IMG/VR virus record: IMGVR_UViG_3300025168_010309
Coordinates: 1 to 22,990 of that record
DNA length: 22,990 nt
From: a virus
Strand: one strand, 5' to 3'
The notes beneath the pieces were generated by a model. The model was not told where the DNA came from. It saw only the letters and a program-made list of their open reading frames with translations, and ran no database searches. The first letter of the stretch is position 1. Every line of letters begins with the position of its first letter. The position numbers were made by a program, and so were the translations under genes. Below, piece after piece: positions 626 through 16,222 of the stretch.

Positions 626-781
626 TCAAAAGGACTCCGCAGGAGGCTGTATTTCGCTTCCTACGGCTCCTATCGGCTCTGTGGGTGTGACTTTAGCTGG
701 AACTGGCTTTGTAGGCTCAGGGGCCTTGTAAGCAGCCACAGCGATAAGTGCAATTATAAACAAACTTATGTAGTATTTCAT
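626..781 (-). CDS. Short secreted or membrane-anchored Pro-rich peptide, 51 aa
   Basis: The N-terminus (MKYYISLFIIALIAVAAY) is a short positively charged start followed by a hydrophobic helix of about 14 residues, fitting a signal peptide or membrane anchor. The remainder (20-51) is Pro/Glu/Val-rich. There is no lipobox Cys, so it is not an obvious outer-membrane lipoprotein (o-spanin). The ATG at 781 was chosen over an ATG at 913 because the longer version would overlap about 100 bases of the peptidase gene and place its hydrophobic segment internally. The ribosome site is weak (GGGAAG about 10 nt upstream). Near a holin-like gene, an envelope-located lysis accessory is possible. Confidence 0.6.
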   Translation of the reverse strand: MKYYISLFIIALIAVAAYKAPEPTKPVPAKVTPTEPIGAVGSEIQPPAESF

Positions 782-809
782 AATAAAAAAGGCTTCCCTG
801 CCCCCGCTT

Positions 810-1631
810 TCAATCCGTTGATTCTGCTGGCTTAGTGGGATCATGGGGAGTTGTGGTGGACCTGATAATATACCCACCGCCCCATAATCTTTCTGAATCA
901 TACCGAAATACATTATACGAATCTTTGTACTTCGATAAATACCTTCCGCTTTCCTTGACTAGCTTCATGTGGGGGATGGAATGACCGTTTCGACCGTTTA
1001 CCACCACAAACCCGTGAAGAAGTGCTGAAGCGTGAGCGTCTCTGTTTGGTACGGTGTAGACTTCTAAAGCCCTGAAATGTTCGGCGGTTTCTTCCCATCC
1101 ATTGGGAAGCTCTTTTGGCTTGATCCAGCCTTTTGTGGGCCACCAGTCTTCTTTCCTGCCCGCAGTCTGGTGTACCGTGTGCTTAAACTTTTCGTATTGG
1201 GTGTTCTTCCCAGCAGGTCCGTCATGCTCAGGAAGCATCCCACTTTCAATCATCTCATACATGGAGTCGATGACACTTGACCCACCCCACTGGCGACCGT
1301 TGGTGATTCTGGTGTAAAGGGCCAGAGGAGATAGCCAGACCTCATGCTCCAGCCCACCAAGCTGACGGTTGTACGCAACCATAAACGCCTGATGAGCAGC
1401 ATGACACACACATTCATGGGAGTTTCCCTGGTGGGTAAACCGTCCAGAGAAGTCCTCGGCTGAACTCTTATGCTTTTCGTGTTCGCTGATCCGGTCATCC
1501 CACTCACTACGATCAATAAAGAACTTATCGGGGAAAGGTTTAGCCCCCGCGTAGTGCATCTCGTCCAACGTAGGGTCAGCAATCAACCCGTCAAACTCAA
1601 AGCGAACGTCGATTAACTTTTTATTGATCAT
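810..1631 (-). CDS. Putative papain-like cysteine peptidase, 273 aa
   Basis: The order of motifs matches the papain (C1) fold. Gln68 in THQGNSHEC is followed six residues later by Cys74, the papain Gln19/Cys25 spacing; Cys76 is an alternative nucleophile. WLSPLALY at about 99-106 and GRQWGGSS at about 112-119 match the 'LS-Q-L' and 'GG' elements. GHSIPH gives His217, KDSYN gives Asp237 in the usual Asn position, and LWGGGYII matches 'WG--GY'. There is no signal peptide or propeptide of normal size. The gene overlaps the giant's end by 11 nt (ATGATCAATAA) and has no clear Shine-Dalgarno, so translation is probably coupled. It sits next to lysis genes, so it may be a peptidoglycan or virion-processing peptidase; the substrate is unknown. 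Confidence 0.65.
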   Translation of the reverse strand: MINKKLIDVRFEFDGLIADPTLDEMHYAGAKPFPDKFFIDRSEWDDRISEHEKHKSSAEDFSGRFTHQGNSHECVCHAAHQAFMVAYNRQLGGLEHEVWLSPLALYTRITNGRQWGGSSVIDSMYEMIESGMLPEHDGPAGKNTQYEKFKHTVHQTAGRKEDWWPTKGWIKPKELPNGWEETAEHFRALEVYTVPNRDAHASALLHGFVVVNGRNGHSIPHMKLVKESGRYLSKYKDSYNVFRYDSERLWGGGYIIRSTTTPHDPTKPAESTD

Positions 1632-4338
1632 TTTTTAACCATATCGGAAATTCTGAGAACGGATCGTCAGGAGGTAACCTGTGTTCAATTGCGGCACGCA
1701 CTCCACGCGCTTTAGCAAGTATTTGCCTAGCAATAGCTTGACGGCGTTTGTTGTTAGGTGCTTCGTAATAATCTGCCCACATTTGCCTAAACTCTTTGTA
1801 AGATTTCTTTTGGGTGTGTCCGTTTCTGTTTGCCCAGTCTACTACAAATTGAATGTCTCTGGCGCTTGTGCCTCCACCATCACGAACAATTCCAGTGAAA
1901 AGACCTACAGTGCGTCCCCAATTATTAAAGTTATTTCCTTTATTCATGTTGGAAACTTCTACTACAGCGCGTCCTGTACTTCCGAATATACCAACTATCA
2001 GGTGATCGACGTTCCTGGCATCAATTTTATCTATGGAAAGGCTTTGTATTAATCTCCCTACGCCAGAAGCCCTTTCTGTGCCTTCTCGCTTAGAAACATC
2101 CAATCGCTTTTCGTAAGGAGGAACTATTGCTCTACCTTTAAAGCTGTCTATATTATCCGCCACATCAATCCAAGTTTTATACGGACCTCTCATTAAGAGC
2201 GAAGGGTCAACTGGAGAAAACGACGTCGCTAAATTTGTCAAATATCCTTCAGACGCTTGCTTGCCCGTAGCACCTCCTGAAACGTAATCAATAAATCGCG
2301 TTACTCCTGTTGCCGCAGCACCAAGCTCGTATGGTTTAGGAATTGCAATCCACACATTAGGGGCAACTCGTATGTTGTAATAAAGGTCTTTTCTCCAAGC
2401 CGGAAGCTGCCTGTACTCGTCCCGCTCTTCCTCGCTTCCACTCATATTCCAAGCGTAAACCATTAGCTCTGGAACAAGGCTGTATTTCAACCAAGCTTTG
2501 AAAAATGCTCCTGGGTGTTTTCTGACTCTGCCTGCTGTTCGCCTAAGCGCTTGAACTGCTGCGTTAGTAAAAGGAATCATTTGGTTTACAAGTTTAGTAA
2601 AGCTCCCGCTAACAGCGAAATCTAACAAGTCCCTGGCTTGGTAAGAAGCGTATAATATTGCATCGCTTTCGCTTAACCCCATATCAAGCGCTTTCTTTTT
2701 TGCGACTTTAAATTCGGCCATTCTGTTAAGTTGTTCCGACCCTTCGGCCAGCTTTTGATATCTGTTCCAAGCGTTTTCTAATCCTTGTTTTGTTAGAACC
2801 ATTACGTTTTTTTCTTTGACTAGATTTCCAGTCAAGTGATGTAAATGCGTTGCGTAATCTATTCGGCTTTTTAAATAATGACCAAATTGCCCGCCGCCTC
2901 CAAGCATAAACTCTGACGCAAGGTCAGCGTCAGCGCCGGTTAACGATCCTTTTGCTGCTTTAGCTACGTCCCGAAGCTGGCTTCCGACATGCGTTAGTTG
3001 CGGTCGCGTAAACGTGTCACGAATAATATTTCTAGCCATAAATGCTGGGAAATACGTGATTGTATTACGCAATAACTTGGCTTGAACCGTAAGAAACCAC
3101 GGAAGCGGTGCCGCAGGAGCCATGTTGTCAAATGCTTCTTTAATGTCTGCGTGAAATTGCCAGAATGTATCTTCGCCTTTAATTACTATCTTGACAGCAT
3201 TAGCGTCACCCTTTTCGGTTCGTCGCATAATTTGAGCAAGGTCTACAGGAACGCCTTCGTACATTCCCCTCGGATCACCCATAGCCAAACCAACCATCAT
3301 GGCTAGCGCATTGTTTCGCTGCGCTTCGTACTGCGCAATTTGACCCATTTGCAGCATTGAGACGTAAATATTAGAGACAGGCTCCGTGCTACCAAAAAAC
3401 CGCTTAATTACTTCCTTAGTAGACGTTACAGACGACCGGCTTTTAAGGTCAATTGTGTCAGCAAACACAAGGTTGTTTTCGTCAAGCACTCGCTGCATAG
3501 TTACATAAAACTGATTGTCTTCTTTAATTTTGTCGTACTGCTCTTGGGATATTCGTCCGAAATGCAGCAATGGCTTTAAGATAGTGGCGTCTGCAAATGC
3601 TCTGTACCGCTTTGCTGCCTCTTTAAGTCTAGCAATATCTTTTGACGGAAGAGCGTTAATCTCATCTAACGCTTGCTGGGACACATCAAGGTCACCCACC
3701 AACCCACCACCAGAACCTACCATCTTATTTCTTTTGATGTTGTTGGCGTTAATCATTCGCTTTGCTTTTTTGCCAACAGCTTCCTCGCCTAACTTAAAGT
3801 AAATAATTCGCAAGCCTTCCATGTACTTGCCTTCGCCAAACTTAGCGTCTGCAACTGCTTGTGTTGCTTCCATAAAAGCTTCTGTATAAAGCTTTGTTTC
3901 GTCTGCTAGCTCTTGAGGTATTTCGGTTCCGTCTTCTTTGTGCGAGTTAACTGCTAACTCTAATTCAGCAACAATTAAATCAATGTCTTCAAATAGCTCT
4001 TCTAACGCTTTTTTGTCTATAACTTCGCTTCTTTCAATATGCCGTTCTGAAATCATAAAAGCGTGAACACGTTCTAAATCGCGTTGAAAAGTTTCTTCTG
4101 TTGTAAAATCAAAAGGAGCAAACAGATACTCTAGGTTTCCGACCCCTTGCGCTGACCCGAGACGAACAATCCCTTTGCCTTTATTCCACGCTTCCCAGTC
4201 AATGGGGCCGTGTAATAGCTGGTCCTCGAATTGCGTCATCTGTCCTTTCAGGTTCCTGATTAACATCTCAGGGTCTTTGAGTGGATTTACAACGCCACCC
4301 CTGCGGGCTTTAAGAACGTCAATTGCGTGAAGAGCAGG
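1621..4338 (-). other. C-terminal polyvalent-type region of the giant protein (residues about 3001-3905)
   Basis: The last 900 residues are mostly helical. They include the motif YFPAFMARNIIRDTF (about 3427-3441), close to an 'F-P-F--RN--RD' signature I associate with C-terminal domains of large polyvalent proteins, then YASYQARDLLDFA, an IPFTNAAVQALRR stretch and a late VGIFGSTGRAVVEV element. It resembles the large polyvalent protein-associated domains that mark this class. The exact domain number cannot be assigned by eye. Confidence 0.5.
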
Positions 4339-7300
4339 GTCAAGATTGTCCCCGAACCACACCTGCAATTTGCTATACAAGCCAGGGTTAAACTCATGCC
4401 CAGTTTCCGATTTAATTCTTGTAACTATTTCCTGGGCAAAATGAGCCGTGTTGTTTAAAGCAAGTTTAATAAGACTTTCTTTGTTGCCGCCAAAACCTTC
4501 AAACTTTACATTCGCAATTGTTTTATCTATGCCCGATAGTCCGGCGTGCTGCCGTATCTTATTGCCAAAGTTTTCAAGCTTCTGAAGCGCTTCAGGCGCT
4601 CTTGACTTTAAACGGTCCAAAATGAATTTAGAAAACGTCGGTGCTTGATCAAGCGTAGCATCTGGGTTTACCAAGTAAGCCCTGATCCATTCTGCAATAG
4701 CTTCGCCTACAACGTAATCTTGTTTTGACTGCGGGCCAGTAGCTTGAATGGAACCATACGCCGCAAAATTCATAATTTCTTCCAGCATCCCCTTGGCTTC
4801 GTCGCTGAAATCCATGATTTCTATTTCAACGTCTTCAATTGTGCCGTCAGCGTGCGTAACTGTAGAGGGATACTTATCCACTTTGATAAGCTCTGAGCCA
4901 ATCTGGGTAGCGTCGTCTACATAATGACCAAGCTCGTGCGCAGCCGTATCGAGGTCGCCCCCGTACTTAATTTTAATTTGACCAGTGCGAGGCTGGTAAG
5001 AACCAAGAACATTTTTCTTAGTCTTTGCTTTTATTGGAGTTCTTCCAACATCTACGGTAGCTATAACTGACCCAGGAGTTGGGGGAGTTTGCCCTTCTGG
5101 GAAAGGCAAAGGCGAGACTTTTATTCTGGGAAGAACAGTTGTTTGCGGCCTAGCCTGAAGCGGTGCTGATTTATCCATTCCGCTAGCTGTTTTAAAACCC
5201 TCGAACTTCTTTCGGGTGTCAGCCTCAGCAGTTTTAATTGAACGTAATACGTTTTTAGTTACAGATTTTGCCACGGCCATTTGAATCTGAGCTTTAGTTT
5301 TTCCTTTTGTGTCTATGCCTCTAATTTTGGCTTCGACCTTTAAAGCAGAGTCATCAAGAGCGCCTGCCCACTCAAGTTCCTTCTCGTACACCTTTGCTGG
5401 GTCAAGGTTTCCATACCGCTCTTTGACTTTTTGTATAGCTTCATCTAAAGATTTTCCGTCCTGAACGTACATCGCAACAACTTTGTAAAACGATGTTTTA
5501 AATTTATTCAGTCGAGAACGCTTTTCCTTTTGTTCCGTTGCAGCCTCAGTGGGGGTGGGAGCAGAGATTTTTTCCCATATAGCTTTTAATTTTGCGGATG
5601 GTTTTCCTGTTAAAACCCTGTCTTCTAGCTCTAGCTTGCCAGTTGACTCTAGCTCGGCCATTTGGCTTGGAGTTATTTTTCCTAAATCAACGATTGGAAC
5701 AGAGTTTATTGACGTTTTTCGTTTTTCGCTTTTATCTAGCTTTGGCGATGGTTGGTTAGTTTGGTTGCTTGGCGGGATGTAAACGACAACGTTTGTTGAA
5801 ATTCCTTTTCTGCCGCCGCTCGATTTTGCTATATAAACAACGCTGTCTATGGGGTTGTATTCTACGCCTGTCTGCTCGGCCATTAACGCTTGGTCTTCGT
5901 TGTTGTCAAATAATCTGTCTAGAGCTTTGGGGTCAACTTGAGTAAGTTCCATCCACTCCTGCTCAGACACAATCAATGGATTTTCTATAGTTACATTCCA
6001 AGCAGCCGTTTTGCCGTATGTTTTGGCAAAACTTTCTGACGAAATAAAGTAATTACCTTTGCCCGAATAAAGTTTTTGTGGATTGCCTTCTCTTGCGCCC
6101 CGATAAACAACCCCTGCGTTTATTTTGTCAGCAATTTCCATTTTCACTGACTCGTCTGCTCTTTGTTCCGGCGTACTTACGTCTATTCCAGAAACGTCTA
6201 TTGGCCCCTCAGCAGCCTCAGTGGGGGCTTGGGCTCTTAGGTCTCGCACAGGGAAAGGAACCGTGTGCCTGTTGTCTTGCCCTTGCAGCGTTGACGGCCA
6301 CGTTCCCGTTAATTTGTCCCAGTTGCCTTCATCTTGCTTTGTCCAAACTATAGCATCGCCTGGAGTGGTGCTGTCACGGCGACCTTGAATAGACCGAAGA
6401 TTTACCGGCATAGACGTTACGCCTTGCTTAATTAACGCAAGGGCTCGATGGCGTCCTTCGTGCGACGTAACAACAGCATTGCCTTTCCCATCATGATCAA
6501 ACTCAAGCAATGGAATTTGGTCAAACTGCTGGCTTCCAGACATAACCGACGAAACCGTTGCTGTTTTTGTTTTATCTGGTGTTTTAACGTCATCGGCTAA
6601 CTGTAAAAATTGTTCTGGAGACATATAAACTATGGCGGATCGTGAGCCGTGGCTAAACGCACCAGTTTCTTCAAACGCTTCGTCAGTGAAATACTTGTCT
6701 CCGTCTTTGTTTGTTTGTCTGCTTCTGACCAGAACCCCCTCAGCAGCCTCAGTGGGGGTGGCTTTGTCCATAACATTTCGCAGGTCGGTTGCTGATTGCG
6801 CCGCTGCTTCATCTGCTCGCGTAGATAAATCACGCTCTACTGCTTCGCGTGCTTCTTGTTTTGGCGGGGGAACACTTGGCCCTGGAGGAGGGTCTATCCC
6901 GATGGGAGACTTGGCTTCTGCGACAGCATCCAAGATACGATTAACTATGTCAGGCTTATTGCCTGTAGTCCTGACCCCAAGGTCTTTAGCAATTTCTTTT
7001 AGCTCGTTTTTGGTTTTACCTTCAAGCTGCTCTTTTGTTTCTGTGAACTTAGCTCGCCGATTAATCTGGTTTTCTTTCTCGGTCCTCTTGCGGTCACCTT
7101 TGGCTTTCCTTGAGTCTAAAGCTGCTTGAAAAAACGATTTTGGTCGAACCTTAGCGGCAGCATCTACAAGATTTTTTTGCGTAGCAGTTAGCTCCGTCCC
7201 TTCGTCCTGGGCTATAGCTAAATCAATGGCCTCTCTTATCCACGTTCCACCCTTTTCTCTTGTCATTGCAATTGTAGTTGCTACGTCTTTGTCAATTATG

Positions 7301-10300
7301 TCGCTGACAACGTCGCGTATTTTGTTTATCTGCCCGCTTTTAACCTTAACGCCAGTGATGTTTGTGTGCGTAATAGGTGCTTTGGTTTTGCCTTCTGTGC
7401 CAGCAATAGGCTGACTTACATACGCTCCTACGCTTCTGTTATTATTAACCAGGCCGCTTGTAAAACCTGCCCCTGGGAAAAGCTTGTCTAACGCTTTTGG
7501 AAGATTGGTTTTTTCGTCTGGGCCTGCTTTAAAAGCAGCTCTTAATATTCCTGCGTCATGCTTGCCGATAAACAGCGGCGTTCCGCTTCGGCCAGCAACG
7601 CCACCAAACTTTATAACTACTCCAGGTGTTTCTAATGCTTTTCCGTCACGGTCTTTGTAAGTTAATTTCGCAACCCAGTTTGCGTCACCGCCAGCTTTTG
7701 CATACTGTCCTTGTGTGTACGATCCGTTAGCCCATAAAACAAACGCTTGTTGACGACGAGCCTTTTTTTGCCGTGGGGTGGTCCCCATTATTTCGTCGTA
7801 CTTATTAATTACGTCTTGCGCTTTATTCTTTCTGTTGTCGGCAAATCGTTGTAATTCAGCGTGCTGTTCCGATGTCATCCTAACTGGATTGTATAAAGGA
7901 AGAGAAGCATTGGGTGACGCAGCAGTCCCTACCTCGAAGTTCTCATCATTCGCGGGAACGGTTATGTTTTCCTGCGGCCCAAAGGTTTCAGTTTTAGTAG
8001 TTACATCTGTTTCAATTCCCACAGACTTGTAAAAATCTGCGGCGTTTTTCGGGGACGTTCCACCCGTAAATTTGGACAAAAAACTTAACGCATCTTTTTC
8101 GTTAACTTCAGAGGGCTGCTTACCATCTAAGTCTCTATCAATTACACGCTGGCGAAGTGCTTCATGGCCTTCGCCGCCCTTTTTAATAAAGCTGTCTGGG
8201 ATTGCTGCTGAACCTTCTAATATTTCGTTTGCGTTTTCTATAGCTTCGATGAGCGCTGCTTTTCTCATCGTCCCAGCGTTCTTAATACCAAGCTCTTTAG
8301 CTATCCCTTTAAGCTCGTTGACATTCATAGCGTCGAGCTTTGGATCACCTTCGGTTGGCCCTGGTGCAGCCTCAGTGGGGGCGGGCTGTTCTTGTGGATT
8401 GAACTCAACTATTTGCGAATGTCCAAAAACTCGCCGCAACGCTCTTACGTCTTTAATTCCTGCGCCTTCATCAAAATCTCGCAGCTTGCGAACATTCACA
8501 ATGACTCCATCGTGTCCCCGTTTAGCAAGCACAGACCGTATTTTTCTTAATGCCATCGCCCAGTCAGAAGCAGGTGCCCCTTTGTCTGGGATGTTTATTT
8601 GTCCAGCTAGTTCAGCAAGTTGTTCGTCTGACTCAAGAACATATGGGTTTTCAAGCGTAATGTTCATTTCGCTTACATTTGGCCCGTAACGCTTTGCGTC
8701 TTTTTCTGACAACGCAGTGTAACGACCTTTCCCTAACGCTGGGCCTTCTACTCCCTCGGCGTACACTGATGACTTGTCAGTACGTCCTTTGCCGTGAAAC
8801 GTAGTAAAAGATGTTGGCTGACCAGTTTTGACGCCTCCCCATATGTCTGGTGTCGCACCAAGCTCGGCCATGCTTTGGCCTTCAATTTCATCCATGCTCA
8901 GGATTGGCTCGGCTTTAACAACGTCTGCTTTAGGTGTCGGCTGAGGTGTGGGTTGCGGAGCAGGCTCTGGTGTTGGTTGCGGTGTAGGTGTGGGTTGAGG
9001 AGTAGGTTCTGGAGTGGCTTCAGCGTCTTTAGGAAGGAAGCCAGCTTTTTGTAGCTCTTTAGTTATCGGGTTTTCAAACTCTATCCCTGCGTCAACAAGT
9101 GTTCCTATAGATTGAATCAACTGACGCTGGGGAAATTCAAAAATTTTGGCCCATCTTGGGTCTGTGAGTATAGCTTGAACCGTGTCGCCGGTAATGTTTT
9201 CAAGCATTCTTACTAACACTTTTGCTTGAAGCTCGCTAAGAGTACCGTCTTCAATTGCATGATTTATGTTAGGTATTATTACTGCCGCCGAACCGTGCTT
9301 GTTTTTGTCATTGTCAGGCAAAAGATTTTTATTAACTATATTGAGAGCGTCCTGGGTTTTTTTATCTGTAGCGGGTGCAGGCGTTGGTTGCGGAGTAGGC
9401 TCTGGGGTAGGTTCTGGCGTGGGCTGGGGCGTGGGGTCTGGGGTTGGTTGAGCAGGGCCAATAGCAGCCTGCCTCTTTTTGGCTATAGCAATTCGTTTTG
9501 CTATCTCATCTCTCTGTTTAATATCATTTTGCAGTCCTTCGTCCGTTGCAATCCCTTCAACATAATCATTATCACGATAACTTTTTTCCGATGATTTAAT
9601 ACTTTCTTCTAATTCATTAAATTCACGTTCAGCTTCTGTTATAGTTGCAGGCCAACCTCCAAACTCATCGGGAATAAGGATTTCTATTCCTTTAGGGCCA
9701 AATCGCCCGGACGCATCTTTGCTCGACCTTCCTTCTGTACTAACTCCGCTTTCGTCGAATCGCTGAAGGTCTTCGGCTCCACCTTTAATGGGCGCTTCTG
9801 TAAACCCAAAAGTGTCGTGTTGTTTTTTATCAAACGAGTCAACTGTTTCGGGGGTAATGGCAGGTACAACTTGTACCCCGCGTACTTCGTTCAGTGCTTT
9901 CTGCTCTGCTTCTTGCTGGTTAGCTGCTTGAACACTAATCACTCTCTCACGCCCGTTGTGCATAACTGTTACGGAATGCCACCTTGGTGCATTACGAAAA
10001 GCGTTTAAACGCTCCGCAAATGGACGCAATGAATCAGCAAGCTGTTGCCGTTGAGGACCGCTTAACTTACCGCCAGGAAGTATTTTTGCCAGCTTTGTTC
10101 GAGTAGGTGAATTAACAAACTCAAGCACGCCGTCAGGGTTAGACATCATTATTGCTTGGTTCATTAGGAATGATGTTTTGCCGAAATCCTTTAACTCTTT
10201 TGTAACTTGATTTTTTATTTGGCGGTTGAACTCAAACTGATTTATTACTGCGCCTTGCGCACTCACCACTTCACCAAAGCCAGCACCAATGACTGCACCT

Positions 10301-13300
10301 TTAATGGCTTCTGACACGGCTGTTGTGATAGCCGACTTAGACATTCGCTTGTGGTCAATGAAGTAACCAGCGGCTATAGACTCACCTATAGCAGTCAACG
10401 CTTCTTGCCAAGCTTCACTAGCTACTGTCGCAGGTAGTAAAGTAAGTGACGCCATTCCCTGTCTTACAGCGGACTTCATTACTCCAGAAACTGGACCTTT
10501 AGTTCCTAAGAAACCTCCAGGTTTAAAGTACCGAAGAATACCTTCACTACCAGGAATAATCTTTCCTAAATTTGCTGCCATTACCATCGGGGCAGTTTCA
10601 GCCATTGCCAACAAAACACCGTAAGCTACTGAATGCTCCTGGCCGTGACCTGCTTTGCGTGACTCTAGGTAGCCATCCCCAAACGACGTTGCACCAGCCA
10701 ATGCTGTAACGCCGCCCATGCTCTTCATTACAGGAGCCAGATTGCCTGTAATTGCTGCTGCTAAAAGAAACGACATAGCGTTTCGGGCAGGCGCAGATAT
10801 TTTTGCAATGTTAGGGGAAAGAAATTGCTTTTCTAATTCTTGTACAGCAATGCTGTGATTGTCGATGAGTTCTTTAAAGCGAAGTCCGGCAGTTTCTGCC
10901 CCTGGAACTCCAACAGCGCCAGCAACACCGTATACAGCCGTACCAAGCATTCCAACAGCTTCTTGGCTAACAGACAACGACCACAGTGCAAATTTTGAAA
11001 GAGAACCTCGTTTCGGCATGTTTACCATGTCGGCAATATGCAAAGCTAATTCTTTACCCCGAGATGCTTCCAGCTTGCGTAGCGCTAAAACGTAATCTTC
11101 TTTGCTGGTTTTTTGAAGCGACAACTGCTTAACAACTTCTTGATCGCCTTTATGTTTAAACTGGTCGTAAACAATAGACGCTAATTTAGCACGCGCTGTC
11201 TGCCAATTAGTATCGATATGAAACTTTTCAAAAACTTCATCGAGGTCTGTTACAGAACCCCAGTAACCTTGTTTTTCTAAATGATCCCTAAGCCTGGAAT
11301 AAGATTCAGCGTTAGCTTTTCTTTGTTTGGCAGCTTTAGATAATATTTTAGAGCGTTCGCTTTCCGGTATAACGTCTAGCTTATCTTTTATGAATCCTGG
11401 TAAAAAATTAGCTTGGTCGATTATGTATTCTATTTTGTTTATGTTGTCTAACGCACCTTCGCCCAGCGTTTCTGGTTGCGCACCGCGACGGTCAGCTTTT
11501 ATGAGGTTTGCTTGGGAAGCGGCAAGCTGCTGATCGAACTTATTTAATGTAATTTTGGCTTGTGTTGTGTGTTTAAAAGCATGATCAATTAAAGCGTTTA
11601 CTTTTTCGTCGGTTAACTCGGGGTGGTTTGTTTTTAAGAAGTGGCCTAAGTATCGGCGCTTTTCTTCTTCAGGTAGTTCAAATAACCGTATCTCTTGTCC
11701 GTTTTCTAAAACAATTGCTTGGCGATTCTGAATGTGATCCATCATCACTTGGCGAATTTGAAACAGCGGGTTTTTAGCCTGGCTTTCAAACCACTGCTTA
11801 CGCCGCTCTGCATGCGTTTTTTGTAGCTTTTCGTAAGAACTTGGGCCTTCAAACGGAACGGCTGTTCCTCCGTACCCTGGAGTAACTGCGTGCATTAACT
11901 CAGCCAGAGCGTTTATGCCATGCCGAGCGCCTTCCATGCCTTTGTGTCCGAGACTTTCGTACCACGGCATGTCATCGCTAATGTCTTCTGAAGGTCGTCC
12001 TCCGACGCGAGGATCGTATTCGCCTCTCGCTGTATCTACGGGATCAGTTTCATAATCTCGGTCAACTAATCTTGCTTGGCTATCAACCCAATCTCTAGCT
12101 TGTGCCTCTCTACCCTCTGACAGTGCAAAACCAATTTCGTCAAACTTCCGTGACTTTCGCGGACCAGGGTCTTTCCTAGCCATTTGCCCAAGACCCATAA
12201 GAGACGCGCTGGTAGGATCAAGTCCTAGCATTTCTTCCGCACCAGCCGCTAGCACATTGGGATCGACAGCGATGTCTTGACGCCGCTCTTCGCGTGCTTG
12301 GTTTAGACGAGCTTCTTGCTCGTTATGCTGCTGTCGTTGTTGCTCTAAATACACCTCGGCATCAGGACGAGGTTGCCCCGCAGCCCTAGCGTCTGACCGC
12401 TCCCATTCTCCGTCAAGCCTTGCTTGAATGCGGCTTAACCGTGTTCGCCTGTCGCGTCTTTGGTTGATTAACTCGCTAAACGCTCGCCCTTCAATGCGGT
12501 CGCTCCACGCAGCGCCTTCAACCAATGGGTTTTGGGTGTACCACGTTTTGAAACCTTCGTGCAGGTTTTGACCGTGCAACTCAGGAAGTTCATGCGCAGA
12601 ATACCTGCCAAGCTTTTCGTCGGTGTATTTATCAAGAAGCTCATCAACTATTTTAATAGCGTCAGGGCTAGTGAGAATTGCCTGCTTTCTTTGTTTTTCA
12701 AAATCTTTTTGTTTGCGAACGCGCTCGTCTCTTATCTGAGATTCTTCTTCTTCTTTAGAATGACGAGCAGATTCTGCTTGCTGAATAATTCTGCCAGTGG
12801 GCGTGTTCTCTGCACTGCGGTTAGAAAACCCCATGTACGGTCGCTCATCCAATACTTGAGGAGCCCGAGGTCGTTCTGGTACTCCGGCATCTTCTTGGCT
12901 GGGTTGATAACCAAATTGTTTTACAAACTGTTCTTCGGTGCCGCCTTGTTGCTTCCAGCTACCAAGATGCTTTTTGTATTCTTTAACGCTTTCCATCCAC
13001 TGGTCCATAGCGGATGACCAGTTCCTATAAGCGTCTGTTTGTTGTAGATTTTTTTCGGCTTCTTTTTCCCTTTGGTAGCGTTCTCGTTCAAGCTGCCGCA
13101 TGCGTTCATTTTCTTCTTCGTTTAAAAGAAGATTTGTGAACTCAGTATTTTCGCGGTCATAGACAACTGGTTGCGCGCGTTCTATTGGCGCGCCGCCTGG
13201 AACCGGAATAGGTTCTGTTAAATCAGCAACCGTAGGTTCGTCGAAAAGAGAATCTTGGTGGGGTATATTAATCCCCTGCTCTTGAAGGGAAGGTACATAG

Positions 13301-13338
13301 ACTTCCTGTCCCTGAGCATTTCTTACAATGCGTCCCAT
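1621..13338 (-). CDS. Giant multidomain polyvalent protein, 3905 aa
   Basis: One uninterrupted frame of 3905 codons. In order: a charged, Gln/Arg-rich helical N-terminus (1-700); a hydrophobic Gly/Ala-rich region (about 785-1035); a Pro-Thr linker (about 1295-1322), a short domain and a second such linker (about 1440-1470); an ADP-ribosyltransferase-like domain (about 1510-1648); a SAP/Rho-N-like module (about 1665-1708); an unknown domain (about 1760-2090); a second SAP-like module (about 2104-2143); a ParB-like domain (about 2235-2320); a second ART-like domain (about 2405-2525); a possible third SAP-like module (about 2661-2690); an HELGH zincin (about 2745-2910); and a long helical C-terminal region. 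This is the layout of phage polyvalent proteins, which are delivered with the DNA. The ATG has AAAGG ten bases upstream. Its stop overlaps the peptidase start by 11 nt. Most domain calls are by motif. Confidence 0.85.
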   Translation of the reverse strand: MGRIVRNAQGQEVYVPSLQEQGINIPHQDSLFDEPTVADLTEPIPVPGGAPIERAQPVVYDRENTEFTNLLLNEEENERMRQLERERYQREKEAEKNLQQTDAYRNWSSAMDQWMESVKEYKKHLGSWKQQGGTEEQFVKQFGYQPSQEDAGVPERPRAPQVLDERPYMGFSNRSAENTPTGRIIQQAESARHSKEEEESQIRDERVRKQKDFEKQRKQAILTSPDAIKIVDELLDKYTDEKLGRYSAHELPELHGQNLHEGFKTWYTQNPLVEGAAWSDRIEGRAFSELINQRRDRRTRLSRIQARLDGEWERSDARAAGQPRPDAEVYLEQQRQQHNEQEARLNQAREERRQDIAVDPNVLAAGAEEMLGLDPTSASLMGLGQMARKDPGPRKSRKFDEIGFALSEGREAQARDWVDSQARLVDRDYETDPVDTARGEYDPRVGGRPSEDISDDMPWYESLGHKGMEGARHGINALAELMHAVTPGYGGTAVPFEGPSSYEKLQKTHAERRKQWFESQAKNPLFQIRQVMMDHIQNRQAIVLENGQEIRLFELPEEEKRRYLGHFLKTNHPELTDEKVNALIDHAFKHTTQAKITLNKFDQQLAASQANLIKADRRGAQPETLGEGALDNINKIEYIIDQANFLPGFIKDKLDVIPESERSKILSKAAKQRKANAESYSRLRDHLEKQGYWGSVTDLDEVFEKFHIDTNWQTARAKLASIVYDQFKHKGDQEVVKQLSLQKTSKEDYVLALRKLEASRGKELALHIADMVNMPKRGSLSKFALWSLSVSQEAVGMLGTAVYGVAGAVGVPGAETAGLRFKELIDNHSIAVQELEKQFLSPNIAKISAPARNAMSFLLAAAITGNLAPVMKSMGGVTALAGATSFGDGYLESRKAGHGQEHSVAYGVLLAMAETAPMVMAANLGKIIPGSEGILRYFKPGGFLGTKGPVSGVMKSAVRQGMASLTLLPATVASEAWQEALTAIGESIAAGYFIDHKRMSKSAITTAVSEAIKGAVIGAGFGEVVSAQGAVINQFEFNRQIKNQVTKELKDFGKTSFLMNQAIMMSNPDGVLEFVNSPTRTKLAKILPGGKLSGPQRQQLADSLRPFAERLNAFRNAPRWHSVTVMHNGRERVISVQAANQQEAEQKALNEVRGVQVVPAITPETVDSFDKKQHDTFGFTEAPIKGGAEDLQRFDESGVSTEGRSSKDASGRFGPKGIEILIPDEFGGWPATITEAEREFNELEESIKSSEKSYRDNDYVEGIATDEGLQNDIKQRDEIAKRIAIAKKRQAAIGPAQPTPDPTPQPTPEPTPEPTPQPTPAPATDKKTQDALNIVNKNLLPDNDKNKHGSAAVIIPNINHAIEDGTLSELQAKVLVRMLENITGDTVQAILTDPRWAKIFEFPQRQLIQSIGTLVDAGIEFENPITKELQKAGFLPKDAEATPEPTPQPTPTPQPTPEPAPQPTPQPTPKADVVKAEPILSMDEIEGQSMAELGATPDIWGGVKTGQPTSFTTFHGKGRTDKSSVYAEGVEGPALGKGRYTALSEKDAKRYGPNVSEMNITLENPYVLESDEQLAELAGQINIPDKGAPASDWAMALRKIRSVLAKRGHDGVIVNVRKLRDFDEGAGIKDVRALRRVFGHSQIVEFNPQEQPAPTEAAPGPTEGDPKLDAMNVNELKGIAKELGIKNAGTMRKAALIEAIENANEILEGSAAIPDSFIKKGGEGHEALRQRVIDRDLDGKQPSEVNEKDALSFLSKFTGGTSPKNAADFYKSVGIETDVTTKTETFGPQENITVPANDENFEVGTAASPNASLPLYNPVRMTSEQHAELQRFADNRKNKAQDVINKYDEIMGTTPRQKKARRQQAFVLWANGSYTQGQYAKAGGDANWVAKLTYKDRDGKALETPGVVIKFGGVAGRSGTPLFIGKHDAGILRAAFKAGPDEKTNLPKALDKLFPGAGFTSGLVNNNRSVGAYVSQPIAGTEGKTKAPITHTNITGVKVKSGQINKIRDVVSDIIDKDVATTIAMTREKGGTWIREAIDLAIAQDEGTELTATQKNLVDAAAKVRPKSFFQAALDSRKAKGDRKRTEKENQINRRAKFTETKEQLEGKTKNELKEIAKDLGVRTTGNKPDIVNRILDAVAEAKSPIGIDPPPGPSVPPPKQEAREAVERDLSTRADEAAAQSATDLRNVMDKATPTEAAEGVLVRSRQTNKDGDKYFTDEAFEETGAFSHGSRSAIVYMSPEQFLQLADDVKTPDKTKTATVSSVMSGSQQFDQIPLLEFDHDGKGNAVVTSHEGRHRALALIKQGVTSMPVNLRSIQGRRDSTTPGDAIVWTKQDEGNWDKLTGTWPSTLQGQDNRHTVPFPVRDLRAQAPTEAAEGPIDVSGIDVSTPEQRADESVKMEIADKINAGVVYRGAREGNPQKLYSGKGNYFISSESFAKTYGKTAAWNVTIENPLIVSEQEWMELTQVDPKALDRLFDNNEDQALMAEQTGVEYNPIDSVVYIAKSSGGRKGISTNVVVYIPPSNQTNQPSPKLDKSEKRKTSINSVPIVDLGKITPSQMAELESTGKLELEDRVLTGKPSAKLKAIWEKISAPTPTEAATEQKEKRSRLNKFKTSFYKVVAMYVQDGKSLDEAIQKVKERYGNLDPAKVYEKELEWAGALDDSALKVEAKIRGIDTKGKTKAQIQMAVAKSVTKNVLRSIKTAEADTRKKFEGFKTASGMDKSAPLQARPQTTVLPRIKVSPLPFPEGQTPPTPGSVIATVDVGRTPIKAKTKKNVLGSYQPRTGQIKIKYGGDLDTAAHELGHYVDDATQIGSELIKVDKYPSTVTHADGTIEDVEIEIMDFSDEAKGMLEEIMNFAAYGSIQATGPQSKQDYVVGEAIAEWIRAYLVNPDATLDQAPTFSKFILDRLKSRAPEALQKLENFGNKIRQHAGLSGIDKTIANVKFEGFGGNKESLIKLALNNTAHFAQEIVTRIKSETGHEFNPGLYSKLQVWFGDNLDPALHAIDVLKARRGGVVNPLKDPEMLIRNLKGQMTQFEDQLLHGPIDWEAWNKGKGIVRLGSAQGVGNLEYLFAPFDFTTEETFQRDLERVHAFMISERHIERSEVIDKKALEELFEDIDLIVAELELAVNSHKEDGTEIPQELADETKLYTEAFMEATQAVADAKFGEGKYMEGLRIIYFKLGEEAVGKKAKRMINANNIKRNKMVGSGGGLVGDLDVSQQALDEINALPSKDIARLKEAAKRYRAFADATILKPLLHFGRISQEQYDKIKEDNQFYVTMQRVLDENNLVFADTIDLKSRSSVTSTKEVIKRFFGSTEPVSNIYVSMLQMGQIAQYEAQRNNALAMMVGLAMGDPRGMYEGVPVDLAQIMRRTEKGDANAVKIVIKGEDTFWQFHADIKEAFDNMAPAAPLPWFLTVQAKLLRNTITYFPAFMARNIIRDTFTRPQLTHVGSQLRDVAKAAKGSLTGADADLASEFMLGGGGQFGHYLKSRIDYATHLHHLTGNLVKEKNVMVLTKQGLENAWNRYQKLAEGSEQLNRMAEFKVAKKKALDMGLSESDAILYASYQARDLLDFAVSGSFTKLVNQMIPFTNAAVQALRRTAGRVRKHPGAFFKAWLKYSLVPELMVYAWNMSGSEEERDEYRQLPAWRKDLYYNIRVAPNVWIAIPKPYELGAAATGVTRFIDYVSGGATGKQASEGYLTNLATSFSPVDPSLLMRGPYKTWIDVADNIDSFKGRAIVPPYEKRLDVSKREGTERASGVGRLIQSLSIDKIDARNVDHLIVGIFGSTGRAVVEVSNMNKGNNFNNWGRTVGLFTGIVRDGGGTSARDIQFVVDWANRNGHTQKKSYKEFRQMWADYYEAPNNKRRQAIARQILAKARGVRAAIEHRLPPDDPFSEFPIWLKNDQ
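4609..5106 (-). other. Zincin-like metallopeptidase domain of the giant protein (residues about 2745-2910)
   Basis: HELGH at residues 2801-2805 follows a strand ending IKIKYGGDLDTAA, as the edge strand precedes the HExxH helix in zincins. A later GEAIAEWIRAY helix (about 2877-2890) offers a Glu as third zinc ligand. All three expected elements are present, so an active peptidase is plausible. It may process the giant itself, other virion proteins or host proteins. Confidence 0.7.
5540..5555 (-). repeat. 16-nt junction repeat, copy 4 (PTEAA linker)
   Basis: Identical 16-mer between ART-like domain 2 and the segment that leads to the third SAP-like module and the zincin. Confidence 0.85.
5764..6126 (-). 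other. ADP-ribosyltransferase-like domain 2 of the giant protein (residues about 2405-2525)
   Basis: The domain is paralogous in appearance to ART-like domain 1: VVYRGAREG (Arg2413), then GKGNYFISSESFAKTYG, a strand ending VTIENPL, and a last strand VVVYIPPS. The first motif carries Arg where domain 1 has His, and Tyr2520 lies where domain 1 has Glu1645. It may use a different catalytic class or be a non-catalytic binding copy. Confidence 0.55.
6212..6227 (-). repeat. 16-nt junction repeat, copy 3 (PTEAA linker)
   Basis: Identical 16-mer between the ParB-like domain and ART-like domain 2. Shared identity with copy 2 spans 6205-6227. Confidence 0.85.
6379..6636 (-). other. ParB/sulfiredoxin-like domain of the giant protein (residues about 2235-2320)
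   Basis: The domain begins IVYMSPEQFLQLADD and contains SHEGRHRALALIKQGV followed by MPVNL. In ParB-N-fold proteins a Gly-x-His-Arg(x)-Ala helix followed by a 'PV' strand forms the nucleotide-binding core. The spacing here is compatible. It could be a nucleotide-binding, nuclease or modifying domain; activity cannot be read off. Confidence 0.5.
6743..6758 (-). repeat. 16-nt junction repeat, copy 2 (PTEAA linker)
   Basis: Identical 16-mer just before the ParB-like domain. The identity with copy 3 extends to 23 nt (6736-6758), so these two copies are the closest pair. Confidence 0.85.
8366..8381 (-). repeat. 16-nt junction repeat, copy 1 (PTEAA linker)
   Basis: GCAGCCTCAGTGGGGG on the plus strand, identical in all four copies. 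It encodes a Pro-Thr-Glu-Ala-Ala linker between ART-like domain 1 and the first SAP/Rho-N-like module. Confidence 0.85.
8395..8811 (-). other. ADP-ribosyltransferase-like domain 1 of the giant protein (residues about 1510-1648)
   Basis: The domain shows an HG motif (TFHGKG, His1515), then GKGRYTALSEKDAKRYG, a strand ending NITLENPY, a RGHDGVIVN strand and a closing SQIVEFNP with Glu1645. This order (first-strand H/R-G, G-x-Y, 'A--YG', 'NP', then the last-strand 'QI-E/F-P') is characteristic of ADP-ribosyltransferases found in polyvalent proteins. Targets are not visible. His1515 and Glu1645 are candidate NAD-binding and catalytic residues. Confidence 0.65.
8930..9022 (-). repeat. Pro-Thr linker repeat 2 in the giant gene
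   Basis: This is a second run of the same unit (PEPTPQPTPTPQPTPEPAPQ), placed just before the first ART-like domain. With linker 1 it brackets a segment of about 120 residues, suggesting a removable module. Confidence 0.8.
9370..9455 (-). repeat. Pro-Thr linker repeat 1 in the giant gene
   Basis: The minus strand encodes a run of Pro-Thr-Pro-(Glu/Gln/Asp) units (PTPQPTPEPTPEPTPQPTP). It separates the Glu/Lys-rich N-terminal half from a short globular segment and is probably an extended, protease-resistant spacer. Confidence 0.8.
10234..10986 (-). other. Hydrophobic Gly/Ala-rich region of the giant protein (residues about 785-1035)
   Basis: Several stretches are long and apolar enough to enter a membrane: AVGMLGTAVYGVAGAVGVPG, SFLLAAAITGNLAPVM, YGVLLAMAETAPMVMAANLG and KGAVIGAGFGEVVSA. 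They are separated by short charged loops. In ejected virion proteins of short-tailed phages such segments may help DNA cross the envelope. That role is inferred here; they could also be a packed hydrophobic core. Confidence 0.5.
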
Positions 13339-13351: not shown

Positions 13352-14563
13352 TTAAGCAGGTAACTCGAACATCCCTTGATCCATATCTAAGGGATTACCA
13401 CTCATGTCTTCCATTACATCATTTTGAGCAATCATGTCCTGCTCAGGCTGGTAGTCTACTCGTTGGTCATTGAACTCTGGGTCTAGGTCTTCAGGCTCCA
13501 CTTCTAAATTATCAAAGCCTCCCTGACGTTCATCTATGTCCCCTCGCGGAACAGTGTATGGGTCTTCTTCTCCATAATACGCTTCCTCGTGTGCTTGATT
13601 TTTCATTTGCAAAAATTCACCACTGCCAGACGTTGGTGGTGTGTATTTTGTTTCAAGTTGCGCTCTAATCCTCGCTTCGTCGGCAGCGGGATGGTTCGCG
13701 TTTCCGTGGGCTGCTTGGTACTGATTATCTATCCAGTTTTGTTTGTGTTCTGAAAGTAAACCAGCAAGGTTTTTGCTTTCGTTATGATTGGCGAGGTCTA
13801 ATTGTTCACCACGTAAAGTTCCATGGCGTTTGCCTCGGTCTGTTGCACGCTGCTGAACTGTCTTTCGATCCGATTGATCAAGCTCTCTATCTTTTTGATC
13901 AGTCTTTCGAGTGCCGTCCTGTCGAAGCCAGCCATTGTGCGTTTTCTTTTCGTCGAACTCATCTCTTTGCCGGTCTTCTGAAACACGCTTGTTGTAATTA
14001 TCAACACCGTCAACAATTTTTACTGACGTTCCTTCGGGAGTTAGCTGCCATCTGTCAAATATAGGGTTGCCTTCTCTGTCGGTTACTCCAGTATCAATGT
14101 CGTATGTCTTAGGTTGATTTGGAGCAGCATCGATGTCCCACAGCTTTCCGTAAAGCTGATTCATATTCCATTCTCGGGTGTATGGATCAACTTCTGCATT
14201 GTTTTTCCATTGCTCTATTTCCCCTAATATTTGCTTTTGTTCTTGTTCAGTTTCCTGCTGGGCTTGCTGCGCTTTGTAATTTTCGAGCGCTATAGCGTTT
14301 TGAAACTCTTGAGCCTCTAAGAACCTTTGCTGTTGAAATCTTTGGTACTGTATCTGAGAGCGGCGTTGGTCGCTCATTTGCTCTCTGTAAGCGCGACCGT
14401 CTGCCAAGTGTTCTCCAGAACTGTCGCCATAATACTGATTGCCGCCTCCATATCCACCGCTATCGCGGATTTGAATATAGTCCATCCACTCGCGCTGGTT
14501 AGAGGCTATCTGTCCTCGTTGAGCCATCGCCCTTCGTTGAGCGCGGCTCATGTTCAGTATCAT
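13352..14563 (-). CDS. Gln/Asp-rich hydrophilic protein, candidate internal virion protein, about 403 aa
   Basis: Family not recognised. After a basic N-terminus (SRAQRRAMAQRG) comes a Gln-rich helical block (about 60-120 from the start, such as QQQRFLEAQEFQ and QAQQETEQEQKQ), then a charged middle with many Arg/Asp/Lys repeats, and an acidic C-terminal part (EVEPEDLDPEFND). No Cys or membrane segment is apparent. The start is uncertain: ATG at 14563 has no good Shine-Dalgarno, while a TTG at 14590 would give 412 aa and an 8-nt overlap with the Arg-rich gene like other junctions here. It ends 13 nt before the giant gene and may be its partner or chaperone; its acidic tail could pair with the Arg-rich protein next door. 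Both ideas are inference. Confidence 0.75.
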   Translation of the reverse strand: MILNMSRAQRRAMAQRGQIASNQREWMDYIQIRDSGGYGGGNQYYGDSSGEHLADGRAYREQMSDQRRSQIQYQRFQQQRFLEAQEFQNAIALENYKAQQAQQETEQEQKQILGEIEQWKNNAEVDPYTREWNMNQLYGKLWDIDAAPNQPKTYDIDTGVTDREGNPIFDRWQLTPEGTSVKIVDGVDNYNKRVSEDRQRDEFDEKKTHNGWLRQDGTRKTDQKDRELDQSDRKTVQQRATDRGKRHGTLRGEQLDLANHNESKNLAGLLSEHKQNWIDNQYQAAHGNANHPAADEARIRAQLETKYTPPTSGSGEFLQMKNQAHEEAYYGEEDPYTVPRGDIDERQGGFDNLEVEPEDLDPEFNDQRVDYQPEQDMIAQNDVMEDMSGNPLDMDQGMFELPA

Positions 14564-14582
14564 GTCACTTTGTAGTCTAGAT

Positions 14583-15521
14583 TCAGGCAATGTTTCGTCG
14601 TCCCATTCCGCGATTTATGTCTTGCTGATTTTGGTTAATGTTGAACTGCATTCCACGCCGCCACATATTACGCAAATTTGGCAAATTGTTAATCCTGTTT
14701 CCAAGCCCTTGAACTGTCTGCTGTCCTCGTTGAGCTTGACCTAATCTCGTGTGAAACCGGGGCGACATATACCTGTAACCGCCTAAGCTAATGTTTCTTA
14801 ACGGAACCTGCCTGTTTCCTCCACCCAACCACGGTATTAGCGATGGACTTTGCATAGTTGGGTTTCGCTGTCCCCACCGATACCTGTTTGTCGCGCCTTG
14901 ATGCCTTGTAGTGTTACGGTTCATACGGTTTCTCATGCCTGCGGTAGTCGGAGTTGTAAATCTTGTGGCTCCCCTAAAATTGCCGTACTCGCCTCCATGA
15001 CGAGACAATGTAGTTACTCGCCTATGGGATGTTCCGGTGTGAGGATTTCTGTAATTTCCGGCGTATTGACGCCGAGCTTGAACTCTTTCGCGGCGAGCTT
15101 GGCGTCTTGCCGCTGTAAACTCAGTACGGCTTCCAAAATCACTGCGTCTCCGGCCCCCCATAAAATTTGAAAAAGCATCTCGACCAGCACCAGAAAGACC
15201 CCTTCGGTAATGCCTAAGTTGTCGGCTAGAACGATTTACGTTTGCGCTAGCACGCATACCCAAGTTTGTTCCACCGCGACGAGCTTGATTAAGCATTGCT
15301 GCGTATACGTTTCCTCCGTGACCTGCGTGAGCAGTCATTGCTTGATGCCGACCGCCAAAATCAGCACCGTAGGAAGATACTTGAGTTTGAAAACGCCTAT
15401 GAGACCTCCTGCGTGGACGAAACCCTGAGTACAGTTGAGGTGCATACCCACCGCTTCGACGGTTAAACATTCGCCCCCGAGAAAACCGAGACATATTACG
15501 TGGACGTCTAAACAATGCCAT
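14583..15521 (-). CDS. Extremely Arg-rich, Lys-free basic protein, candidate internal DNA-binding virion protein, 312 aa
   Basis: By my count about 61 of 312 residues are Arg, with no Lys, no Cys and only about 7 Asp/Glu, so the net charge is strongly positive. The N-terminus is almost protamine-like (ALFRRPRNMSRFSRGR, then RPRRRSHRR). The rest is rich in Gly, Asn, Gln and Tyr, with further clusters such as ARRQARRERVQARRQ at about 138-152. No catalytic motif is visible. Between two other low-complexity genes and just upstream of the giant protein, a packaged DNA-associated or ejected protein is plausible; RNA binding or a structural scaffold are alternatives. I do not recognise a family. The stop overlaps an alternative TTG start of the next gene. 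Confidence 0.75.
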   Translation of the reverse strand: MALFRRPRNMSRFSRGRMFNRRSGGYAPQLYSGFRPRRRSHRRFQTQVSSYGADFGGRHQAMTAHAGHGGNVYAAMLNQARRGGTNLGMRASANVNRSSRQLRHYRRGLSGAGRDAFSNFMGGRRRSDFGSRTEFTAARRQARRERVQARRQYAGNYRNPHTGTSHRRVTTLSRHGGEYGNFRGATRFTTPTTAGMRNRMNRNTTRHQGATNRYRWGQRNPTMQSPSLIPWLGGGNRQVPLRNISLGGYRYMSPRFHTRLGQAQRGQQTVQGLGNRINNLPNLRNMWRRGMQFNINQNQQDINRGMGRRNIA

Positions 15522-16222
15522 TATCCCATTACTCCCATGCTTCTAAGATGATCCTGAAAATTACCCGCCCCAGTAGAGTAGTTAGCAGTCATGCCACCAC
15601 CGCTAAATTGTGGGTTTGCAATTTGTGTTCTGCGAATGTCTGCTTTTATTCGCATTTGAGCAACTTGTATTTGCGCTCGTGCGTTTGCTGAGTTTGCTGC
15701 AATGCCTGCTCTTTGTGTAGCATTATTGGCAGCGTTCATTGCTGCTGAGTGTTGCCGATCCAAAGCCCTTGAAGCAGATTGAAGTTGTGCCAGCTCTCTT
15801 TGCAACTGTTCTTTTCGTTCCATAGCTGCAAACTGCATTCCTGCTCCAGTTGCCTGAAGGTCCATTGCGTCAGCCCGAGCATCACGGGATTGCTCTGCTT
15901 GAGCTTGCTGTATTCCTAACTGAGAGGCGGCTTGGTTATATCTCTGACCACCCTCTGCTACAGCTTGACGAAATCGTTGTTCGCCAGCCATATTTCCACC
16001 AAGCATTTCCATGCCCGTATCATGAGACATTGCTTGCTCTTGTCGTTGCGCTTGAATTTGCTGCCGATTAAGAGCTTCCAGTTCTGAAGCTCGACCGTGA
16101 GCCATTTCACCTGTCGCTGCCGCAAACGGAGCAGCAACGTCACGCCCCCTGGCTCGTTCTGCTGCTTTACGATACTGCTCTTGAATATCTTGCAGGCTAG
16201 GGATATTAGAAGAAGGGTACAT
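15521..16222 (-). CDS. Ala/Gln-rich helical protein, candidate internal virion protein, 233 aa
   Basis: Most of the protein (about 10-205) is predicted long alpha-helix, very rich in Ala, Gln, Arg, Glu and Met (for example QQIQAQRQEQAM, ERKEQLQRELAQLQSA), compatible with coiled coil. The last 25 residues are Gly/Ser/Asn-rich. No signal peptide, Cys or enzymatic motif is seen. Ala/Gln-rich helical proteins in this position, after tail-tube genes and before a very large protein, occur in short-tailed phages as internal core or ejection proteins (T7 gp14 is a positional comparison, not a detected homolog). The stop overlaps the next start by one base (TAATG). Confidence 0.75.
   Translation of the reverse strand: MYPSSNIPSLQDIQEQYRKAAERARGRDVAAPFAAATGEMAHGRASELEALNRQQIQAQRQEQAMSHDTGMEMLGGNMAGEQRFRQAVAEGGQRYNQAASQLGIQQAQAEQSRDARADAMDLQATGAGMQFAAMERKEQLQRELAQLQSASRALDRQHSAAMNAANNATQRAGIAANSANARAQIQVAQMRIKADIRRTQIANPQFSGGGMTANYSTGAGNFQDHLRSMGVMG

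What the first reader, a model, noticed from the sequence alone, without database searches (positions are those of the whole stretch)
1621..13338. A 3905-residue virion-type polyvalent protein combining two ART-like domains, a ParB-like domain, SAP-like modules and a zincin
The frame is uninterrupted for 11.7 kb, half the window. It strings together motifs for ADP-ribosylation, nucleotide binding, DNA binding and proteolysis, with a hydrophobic region that could assist ejection. Polyvalent proteins delivered with phage DNA are known as a class; the particular domain set and order may be new. The position after tail genes suggests it is packaged and injected to disarm the host.
Basis: partly seen in the sequence, partly recalled or inferred. 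Interest (0 to 1): 0.85.

Follow-up and report, generated by a model that had tools for sequence, protein, structure and literature searches.

The report
Giant phage protein with swappable domains
This phage encodes a giant protein, probably carried in the virus particle and injected into the host, whose middle section is a string of interchangeable effector-like domains separated by a near-identical short DNA sequence, and relatives appear to swap those domains at exactly that sequence.

Summary
The 3905-residue frame is real (minus strand, 13338 to 1621). It is a phage-type polyvalent protein. Conserved N- and C-terminal parts (the latter a zincin-like HExxH region plus LPD38) flank a variable payload: two mutually homologous ART-like domains, two SAP domains and a ParB-like domain. 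SAP and LPD38 pass Pfam thresholds; ART, ParB and zincin rest on motifs and relatives only, and two AlphaFold2 runs were uninformative.

The unexpected part lies at the DNA level. Payload modules are separated by an in-frame 16-base element, CCCCCACTGAGGCTGC (encodes PTEA): four exact copies here, none elsewhere in the window. Six related phages carry 14 copies of its 13-base core in the same gene, between modules that often share no other homology. PTE is encoded CCC-ACT-GAG in 15 of 27 cases against 2.5% expected. In one pair, third-position identity is 92-100% exactly between two elements against a gene median of 46%. The element therefore marks the edges of recently exchanged cassettes. 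Giant genes of eight more distant relatives lack it.

Virion packaging and injection are inferred from synteny and a published relative (JC1 gp69, found in virions). Whether the element is a dedicated recombination site or only shared homology is open.

The parts
1621..13338 (-). giant polyvalent protein gene, 3905 aa, ATG start
   Evidence: third-position-biased divergence from G002 homologue
9727..13338 (-). N-terminal chassis, residues 1-1204; Gly/Ala-rich stretch around 780-1050; 51% identical in G002, absent from G003/G004-type proteins
8929..9456 (-). Pro/Thr/Glu-rich linkers (residues ~1295-1330 and ~1441-1470) around a short module without known family
8383..8829 (-). ART-like domain 1 (residues ~1504-1652; candidate residues H1515, Y1540)
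   Evidence: homologous to ART-like domain 2; homologue L047
8366..8381 (-). element copy 1, CCCCCACTGAGGCTGC, encodes PTEA
   Evidence: before SAP module shared with G002
8230..8337 (-). SAP/Rho_N-like domain 1 (residues 1668-1703)
   Evidence: Pfam
7384..7971 (-). module M3 (residues ~1790-1985), no known family; its homologues in G002 and G001 sit elsewhere in the protein, directly after an element
6922..7026 (-). SAP domain 2 (residues 2105-2139)
   Evidence: Pfam
6743..6758 (-). element copy 2 (residues 2194-2199)
6385..6651 (-). ParB-like domain with HEGRHR motif (residues ~2230-2318)
6212..6227 (-). element copy 3 (from residue 2371)
5779..6138 (-). ART-like domain 2 (residues ~2401-2520; candidate residues R2413, Y2430)
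   Evidence: (sub-threshold ART-PolyVal)
5540..5555 (-). element copy 4 (from residue 2595)
4519..5061 (-). zincin-like region (residues ~2760-2940; HELGH at 2801-2805, downstream Glu in GEAIAEW)
   Evidence: motif conserved in G002, G013, G014, G015
1942..2421 (-). LPD38 (residues 3640-3799) within a ~950-aa C-terminal chassis
   Evidence: Pfam E 4.7e-20; podophage homologues
13352..16222 (-). three small candidate ejection/internal virion genes (412, 312 and 233 aa) just upstream
   Evidence: position only
18296..20737 (-). conserved tail-region protein (813 aa) used to find relatives
810..1631 (-). papain-like cysteine peptidase gene just downstream
   Evidence: G004 homologue is Pfam Peptidase_C1

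Best explanation
The gene encodes a virion-carried polyvalent protein built as a delivery chassis with an exchangeable payload. Inferred: the N-terminal region and the C-terminal zincin-LPD38 region handle packaging, ejection and perhaps self-cleavage, and the central payload (two ART-like domains, SAP domains, a ParB-like domain) acts on host targets or DNA on entry. Shown: payload modules are bounded by an in-frame 16-23 bp DNA element (core CCCCCACTGAGGCTGC, encoding PTEA) kept identical at the nucleotide level, and at least one whole cassette was recently exchanged between diverged phages with breakpoints at two copies. Inferred: the element works as short shared homology for in-frame recombination between co-infecting phages, giving swaps that keep frame and linker. 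The phages encode a NinG/Rap-type junction endonuclease that could assist. The payload is thus a shuffled domain library on a more slowly changing chassis.
For: Element: 4 exact copies in the window, all in frame in this gene, 0.11 expected even at 3 mismatches. It is the most repeated 13-mer across six giant genes, 14 copies, one frame. PTE encoded CCC-ACT-GAG in 15/27 against 2.5% expected, p about 1e-17, so the conservation is of DNA and not only of amino acids. In 2.9 million viral contigs an exact 16-mer scan hits 10 stretches; six lie in five contigs of this clade, all in frame in the giant gene, and four are chance hits elsewhere. Cassette exchange: G003 against G004, identity jumps from unalignable to about 95% or more exactly at one element and falls to 55-80% after the next; windows inside have third-position identity 0.92-1.00, median 0.46, best window outside 0.73. 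The window/G002 SAP1 module also differs at only 16% of synonymous sites against 53-58% for chassis. Left edges of homologous blocks lie within 10 aa of an exact or near element in 9 of 13 cases, 1.3 expected. Module order changes: M3 sits between SAP1 and SAP2 modules in the window but elsewhere after an element in G002. Chassis: zincin-LPD38 region homologous over about 1000 aa in distant relatives (G013 E 8e-69), with helicase/methylase payload there. Virion precedent: JC1 gp69. NinG/Rap in G002 and G004.
Against: No virion, injection or enzyme data for this phage. ART and ParB assignments are below Pfam thresholds and the AlphaFold2 models are poor (pLDDT 42 and 37.5). The element is shorter than usual RecA-dependent homology, and no dedicated recombinase is tied to it. 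Only one pair shows a sharp two-sided recent exchange. Some module edges (for example window residue 2142) have no element nearby. The breakpoints used in the test are not independent of each other.
Confidence: 0.72

Rival explanations
1. An ordinary polyvalent protein. The linker is just a repeated flexible PTEA spacer spread by internal duplication, and module differences reflect usual phage mosaicism with no special role of the linker DNA.
For: PTEA-type linkers with other codons also occur; P/T/E/A-rich spacers are common in multidomain proteins; polyvalent proteins are known to accrete domains (PMC5512222).
Against: Codon identity across phages as diverged as 50% in the tail protein; exchanged cassette ends exactly at two elements; giant genes of eight distant relatives have no such repeat.
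Confidence: 0.2
2. The element is a dedicated site for a site-specific recombinase or a homing-type nuclease, an intragenic cassette system.
For: Near-invariant 16-mer restricted to one gene and one clade; exact two-sided exchange; HNH/NinG nucleases in the genomes.
Against: No integrase or transposase recognised among the genes examined; no inverted-repeat or attC-like structure seen; plain homologous recombination explains the pattern.
Confidence: 0.08
3. The element is conserved as an RNA or translation signal (pausing between domains, or -1 slippage that would meet a TGA just after the C run), and its recombination footprint is secondary.
For: Codons conserved; the -1 frame reads CCC CAC TGA at every copy (sequence shown).
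Against: No canonical slippery heptamer; does not explain the exact exchange boundaries.
Confidence: 0.05
4. The mosaic is an artefact of metagenome assembly joining reads at a short repeat.
For: All members are metagenomic contigs; one (G005) has a gap and a duplicated end.
Against: Records from different datasets, all joins in frame; the exchanged cassette differs at about 3% of bases and by an indel, so it is not the same molecule; the element is shorter than usual assembly k-mers.
Confidence: 0.06

Closest known systems
Phage-type polyvalent proteins with MPTase and LPD38 (Iyer et al. 2017, PMC5512222)
   Same: giant multidomain protein of a tailed phage, late-gene context, zincin motif, LPD38, ART-like, ParB-like and SAP/Rho-N-type nucleic-acid-binding modules
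   Different: this domain set and order; near-invariant DNA element between payload modules and exchange at it, neither mentioned in the sections of that paper read here
Bcep22-like giant virion protein (JC1 gp69, Bcep22 gp75; PMC9144972)
   Same: C-terminal LPD38, 4515 aa, after virion genes and before the lysis genes; found in purified virions
   Different: JC1 carries lytic transglycosylase, methylase and helicase domains; no ART/SAP/ParB payload reported
N4 virion RNA polymerase (gp50; PMC12633501)
   Same: same layout: N-terminal region, payload, HExxH domain, large helical C-terminus; about 3500 residues; encoded next to ejection proteins
   Different: payload is an RNA polymerase; no significant sequence similarity of the C-terminal regions
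Short conserved boundary sequences between phage modules (Susskind/Botstein-type linkers; general knowledge)
   Same: short DNA homology at module edges that promotes exchange
   Different: here inside one open reading frame, in frame, repeated up to four times per gene, bounding protein domains

Membership tests
Polyvalent protein (phage type) | several domains of disparate activity in one polypeptide | tested here: met
   SAP x2 and LPD38 above Pfam thresholds; ART-like, ParB-like and zincin by motif and homologues
Polyvalent protein (phage type) | phage late-gene/virion gene context | tested here: met
   follows tail and small virion-type genes in the window and relatives; same slot in podophages
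Polyvalent protein (phage type) | packaged and injected with DNA | not testable with these tools
   only by analogy to JC1 gp69 (PMC9144972)
LPD38 | Pfam PF18857 above gathering score | tested here: met
   72.9 bits against 27
ART-PolyVal / Tox-ART-HYD2 | profile match above threshold | tested here: not met
   domain 2: 13.8 bits against 31.2; domain 1: no match
ART-PolyVal / Tox-ART-HYD2 | H (strand 1), Y (strand 2), D (strand 5) | tested here: inconclusive
   domain 1 has H1515 and Y1540; domain 2 has R2413 in place of H, and Y2430; third residue unclear
ART-PolyVal / Tox-ART-HYD2 | ART fold | tested here: inconclusive
   AlphaFold2 pLDDT 42
ParB/sulfiredoxin-like | conserved Arg motif (GRHR) and fold | tested here: inconclusive
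   HEGRHR conserved with NCTB homologue; PFIN sub-threshold; fold not resolved
Zincin-like metallopeptidase | HEXXH helix plus downstream Glu helix | tested here: met
   HExGH and Glu conserved in five diverged proteins; fold model poor
N4-type virion RNA polymerase | T7-like RNAP module | tested here: not met
   no RNAP family match
N4-type virion RNA polymerase | homologous C-terminal domain | tested here: not met
   hhalign probability 0.3% (shallow profiles, so a remote relationship is not excluded)

The most novel reading that the evidence does not exclude
The 16-23 bp element is a purpose-kept intragenic exchange site: the phage clade maintains an evolvable cassette library of injected effector domains inside one gene, swapped in frame between co-infecting phages with help of a phage nuclease such as NinG/Rap.
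Probability: 0.3. Interest if true: 0.9.

Novelty: new variant of a known kind. Interest (0 to 1): 0.74.

Why it matters
Polyvalent proteins were known to gain and lose domains, but how such changes stay in frame was not visible in the sources read here. Here a short DNA linker, identical down to silent positions, marks the exact ends of an exchanged cassette. That makes the question testable and gives a handle for finding module boundaries, and so new effector domains, in giant phage proteins. It also suggests that a conserved delivery chassis (zincin plus LPD38) could accept new cargo.

Tried and rejected
AlphaFold2 on ParB+ART2 (4 sequences, pLDDT 41.9) and on the zincin region (2 sequences, pLDDT 37.5) was uninformative, so no fold search was run. 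Whole-protein and ParB/ART2 single-sequence scans of viral contigs found nothing. Both genome scans found no prophage or host link. Phmmer against PDB and tblastn against plasmids gave no match for the payload. The hypothesis that the C-terminus is homologous to N4 vRNAP was tested and not supported. An HMM from the ART-like trio did not reach the Roseovarius podovirus vRNAP that carries the prototype ART. Element hits in L033, L035, L036 and L038 were judged chance: different genes of unrelated phages. Frameshift slippage at the C run was considered and left as a weak rival.

Full report
Check of the observation. The frame is real and lies on the minus strand, ATG at 13338 to stop at 1621, 3905 residues; the plus strand of the same interval is riddled with stops. 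The window is an IMG/VR record of 22,990 bases with all main genes on the minus strand. Compared with its closest homologue the codon-position divergence is 0.39/0.27/0.61 for the N-terminal part and 0.31/0.20/0.56 for the C-terminal part, as expected for a protein under purifying selection.

Domains. Pfam gives LPD38 at 3640-3799 (E 4.7e-20) and two SAP/Rho_N-type domains (1668-1703, 2105-2139). The two ART-like domains of the finding are homologous to each other (18/42 identities, E 3e-6 in a single comparison); the core is GKGxYxxxSExxAKxYG followed by N[IV]T[LI]ENP. The second has a 40%-identical homologue inside another giant phage protein, L047, and a sub-threshold ART-PolyVal match. The ParB-like domain has HEGRHR, a 36%-identical homologue in phage NCTB and a sub-threshold match to the plasmid fertility-inhibition family PFIN. 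The zincin-like region has HELGH and a downstream Glu, both conserved in G002, G013, G014 and G015, the last three only about 26% identical to it. Two structure predictions were of low confidence, so ART, ParB and zincin are named as likely, not proven. In the active-site pattern stated for polyvalent ARTs (H, Y, D; PMC5512222) domain 1 keeps H and Y, while domain 2 has R in place of H.

Context. Upstream lie an 813-aa tail-region protein and three small proteins in the place of ejection proteins; downstream a papain-like peptidase (its G004 homologue matches Peptidase_C1) and small holin/spanin-like genes. Residues about 3230-3797 match giant proteins of podophages Pondi, PTXU04, CF418P1, Palmer, Pascal, several Vibrio phages and a 504-aa stand-alone protein of HTVC010P. 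In Pondi, CF418P1, Palmer and Vibrio 1.232.O the giant gene follows tail/virion-type genes; in CF418P1 and Palmer lysis genes follow it. A relative with C-terminal LPD38, JC1 gp69 (4515 aa), was found in CsCl-purified virions with 51 unique peptides (PMC9144972). N4 vRNAP has the same layout of N-terminal region, payload, HExxH domain and large helical domain (PMC12633501), but no sequence homology to its C-terminal domain could be shown. Distant relatives G013 and G015 carry helicase and methylase-like payloads on the same zincin-LPD38 chassis.

Relatives and mosaicism. The 813-aa protein found relatives with 62-93% identity. In the same slot they carry giant proteins B (G002, 3616 aa), C (G003, 3217 aa), D (G001, 2347 aa, cut by the contig end), E (G004, 2939 aa) and F (G005, gapped). 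W (the window) and B share N- and C-terminal parts (51% and 62%) but differ in the middle. C and E share another pair of ends (63% and 66%) and differ in the middle. W has no detectable homology to C or E although the tail proteins are 84% and 63% identical. D carries a DnaJ-like domain, SAP domains and a zincin-like domain of another kind. Module M3 of W lies between the SAP1 and SAP2 modules, which are adjacent in B, where M3 lies elsewhere.

The element. These payload modules are punctuated by PTEAA-type linkers whose DNA is nearly invariant. CCCCCACTGAGGCTGC occurs four times in the window, all in this gene and in frame, with 0.11 expected even allowing three mismatches. Among 27 PTE tripeptides in the six giant genes 15 use CCC-ACT-GAG, where codon usage predicts 2.5% (binomial p about 1e-17); the 13-base core is the most repeated 13-mer of the set, 14 copies in six genes, all in one frame. 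An exact scan of 2.9 million viral contigs returned ten stretches: six lie in five contigs of this clade, always in frame in the giant gene, and four are unrelated chance hits. Giant-gene frames (2173-3974 aa) of eight phages with capsid proteins at most 45% identical have no 14-mer repeated three times and no element; the 13-base core is likewise absent from their contigs apart from one single-mismatch site in G014.

Exchange at the element. Between C and E the DNA goes from unalignable to 94-100% identical exactly at one element, stays so for about 560 bases (apart from one indel region) and falls to 55-80% directly after the next element. In 60-codon windows the cassette has third-position identity 0.92-1.00, the gene median is 0.46 and the best window outside it 0.73. 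Synonymous difference is 4% inside against 45-52% in the flanking chassis. The W/B SAP1 module (16% against 53-58%) begins just after a W element, at a place where B has what looks like a decayed copy (by inspection). Near copies with up to two mismatches sit at other module edges, such as D 1639, C 1021 and E 1027. Nine of 13 left edges of homologous blocks lie within 10 residues of an exact or near element, 1.3 expected at random. These edges are not independent, so the p value is only a guide.

Mechanism. Shown: modular architecture, nucleotide-level conservation of the linker, and one clear cassette exchange bounded by two copies. Inferred: homologous recombination at the element between co-infecting phages, possibly helped by the NinG/Rap-type endonuclease that G002 and G004 encode, keeping frame and flexible spacing. 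Inferred from the family: packaging, ejection, possible zincin self-cleavage, and action of the payload in the host.

Comparison and novelty. By features tested the protein belongs to the phage-type polyvalent proteins with LPD38. It is not an N4-type vRNAP. The ART and ParB labels fail or miss formal thresholds. The paper searches made here found no description of a DNA-conserved in-frame linker bounding exchanged domains in such proteins; the library holds only part of the literature. I rate it a new variant of a known kind, with interest resting on the element rather than on the domain list.

Noticed in passing
window 1-1631: The papain/holin block directly downstream reads on the same strand as the giant gene, whereas in G002 the same block (23057-25070) is on the other strand and further genes lie between; G003, G004 and G005 likewise have opposite-strand genes next to the giant gene. 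The last codons of the giant gene overlap the papain start. Either an inversion or an assembly join.
   Followed up: partly
window 810-1631: A papain-like cysteine peptidase gene in a phage late region, conserved in G002 (86%) and G004 (35%); role unknown, possibly processing or lysis.
   Followed up: partly
L014 (G001) residues 1080-1235 and 1640-1945 of the giant ORF: The relative's payload includes a DnaJ-like domain (E 9.5e-6) and a second kind of zincin-like domain with a weak, sub-threshold match to the lethal-factor-type peptidase family.
   Followed up: partly
L011-L013 (G002) and L030-L032 (G004) contig ends: The ends overlap in sequence, suggesting complete, circularly permuted genomes of about 45.5 and 47 kb.
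   Followed up: partly
L012:1603-2013 (G002) and L031:3597-4016 (G004): NinG/Rap junction endonuclease homologues, candidate recombination helpers for cassette exchange.
   Followed up: partly
L015 (G003) residues 1436-1613 and G004 residues 1087-1272 of the giant ORFs: The recently exchanged module itself has no recognised family in the whole-protein Pfam scans.
   Followed up: no
L044/L045 (G005): Giant gene interrupted by Ns with a duplicated end; the C-terminal part appears as a separate 881-aa frame.
   Followed up: no
window 17325-18296: Glycine-rich tract in the 323-aa late protein just downstream of the tail gene; its length and sequence vary among relatives.
   Followed up: no
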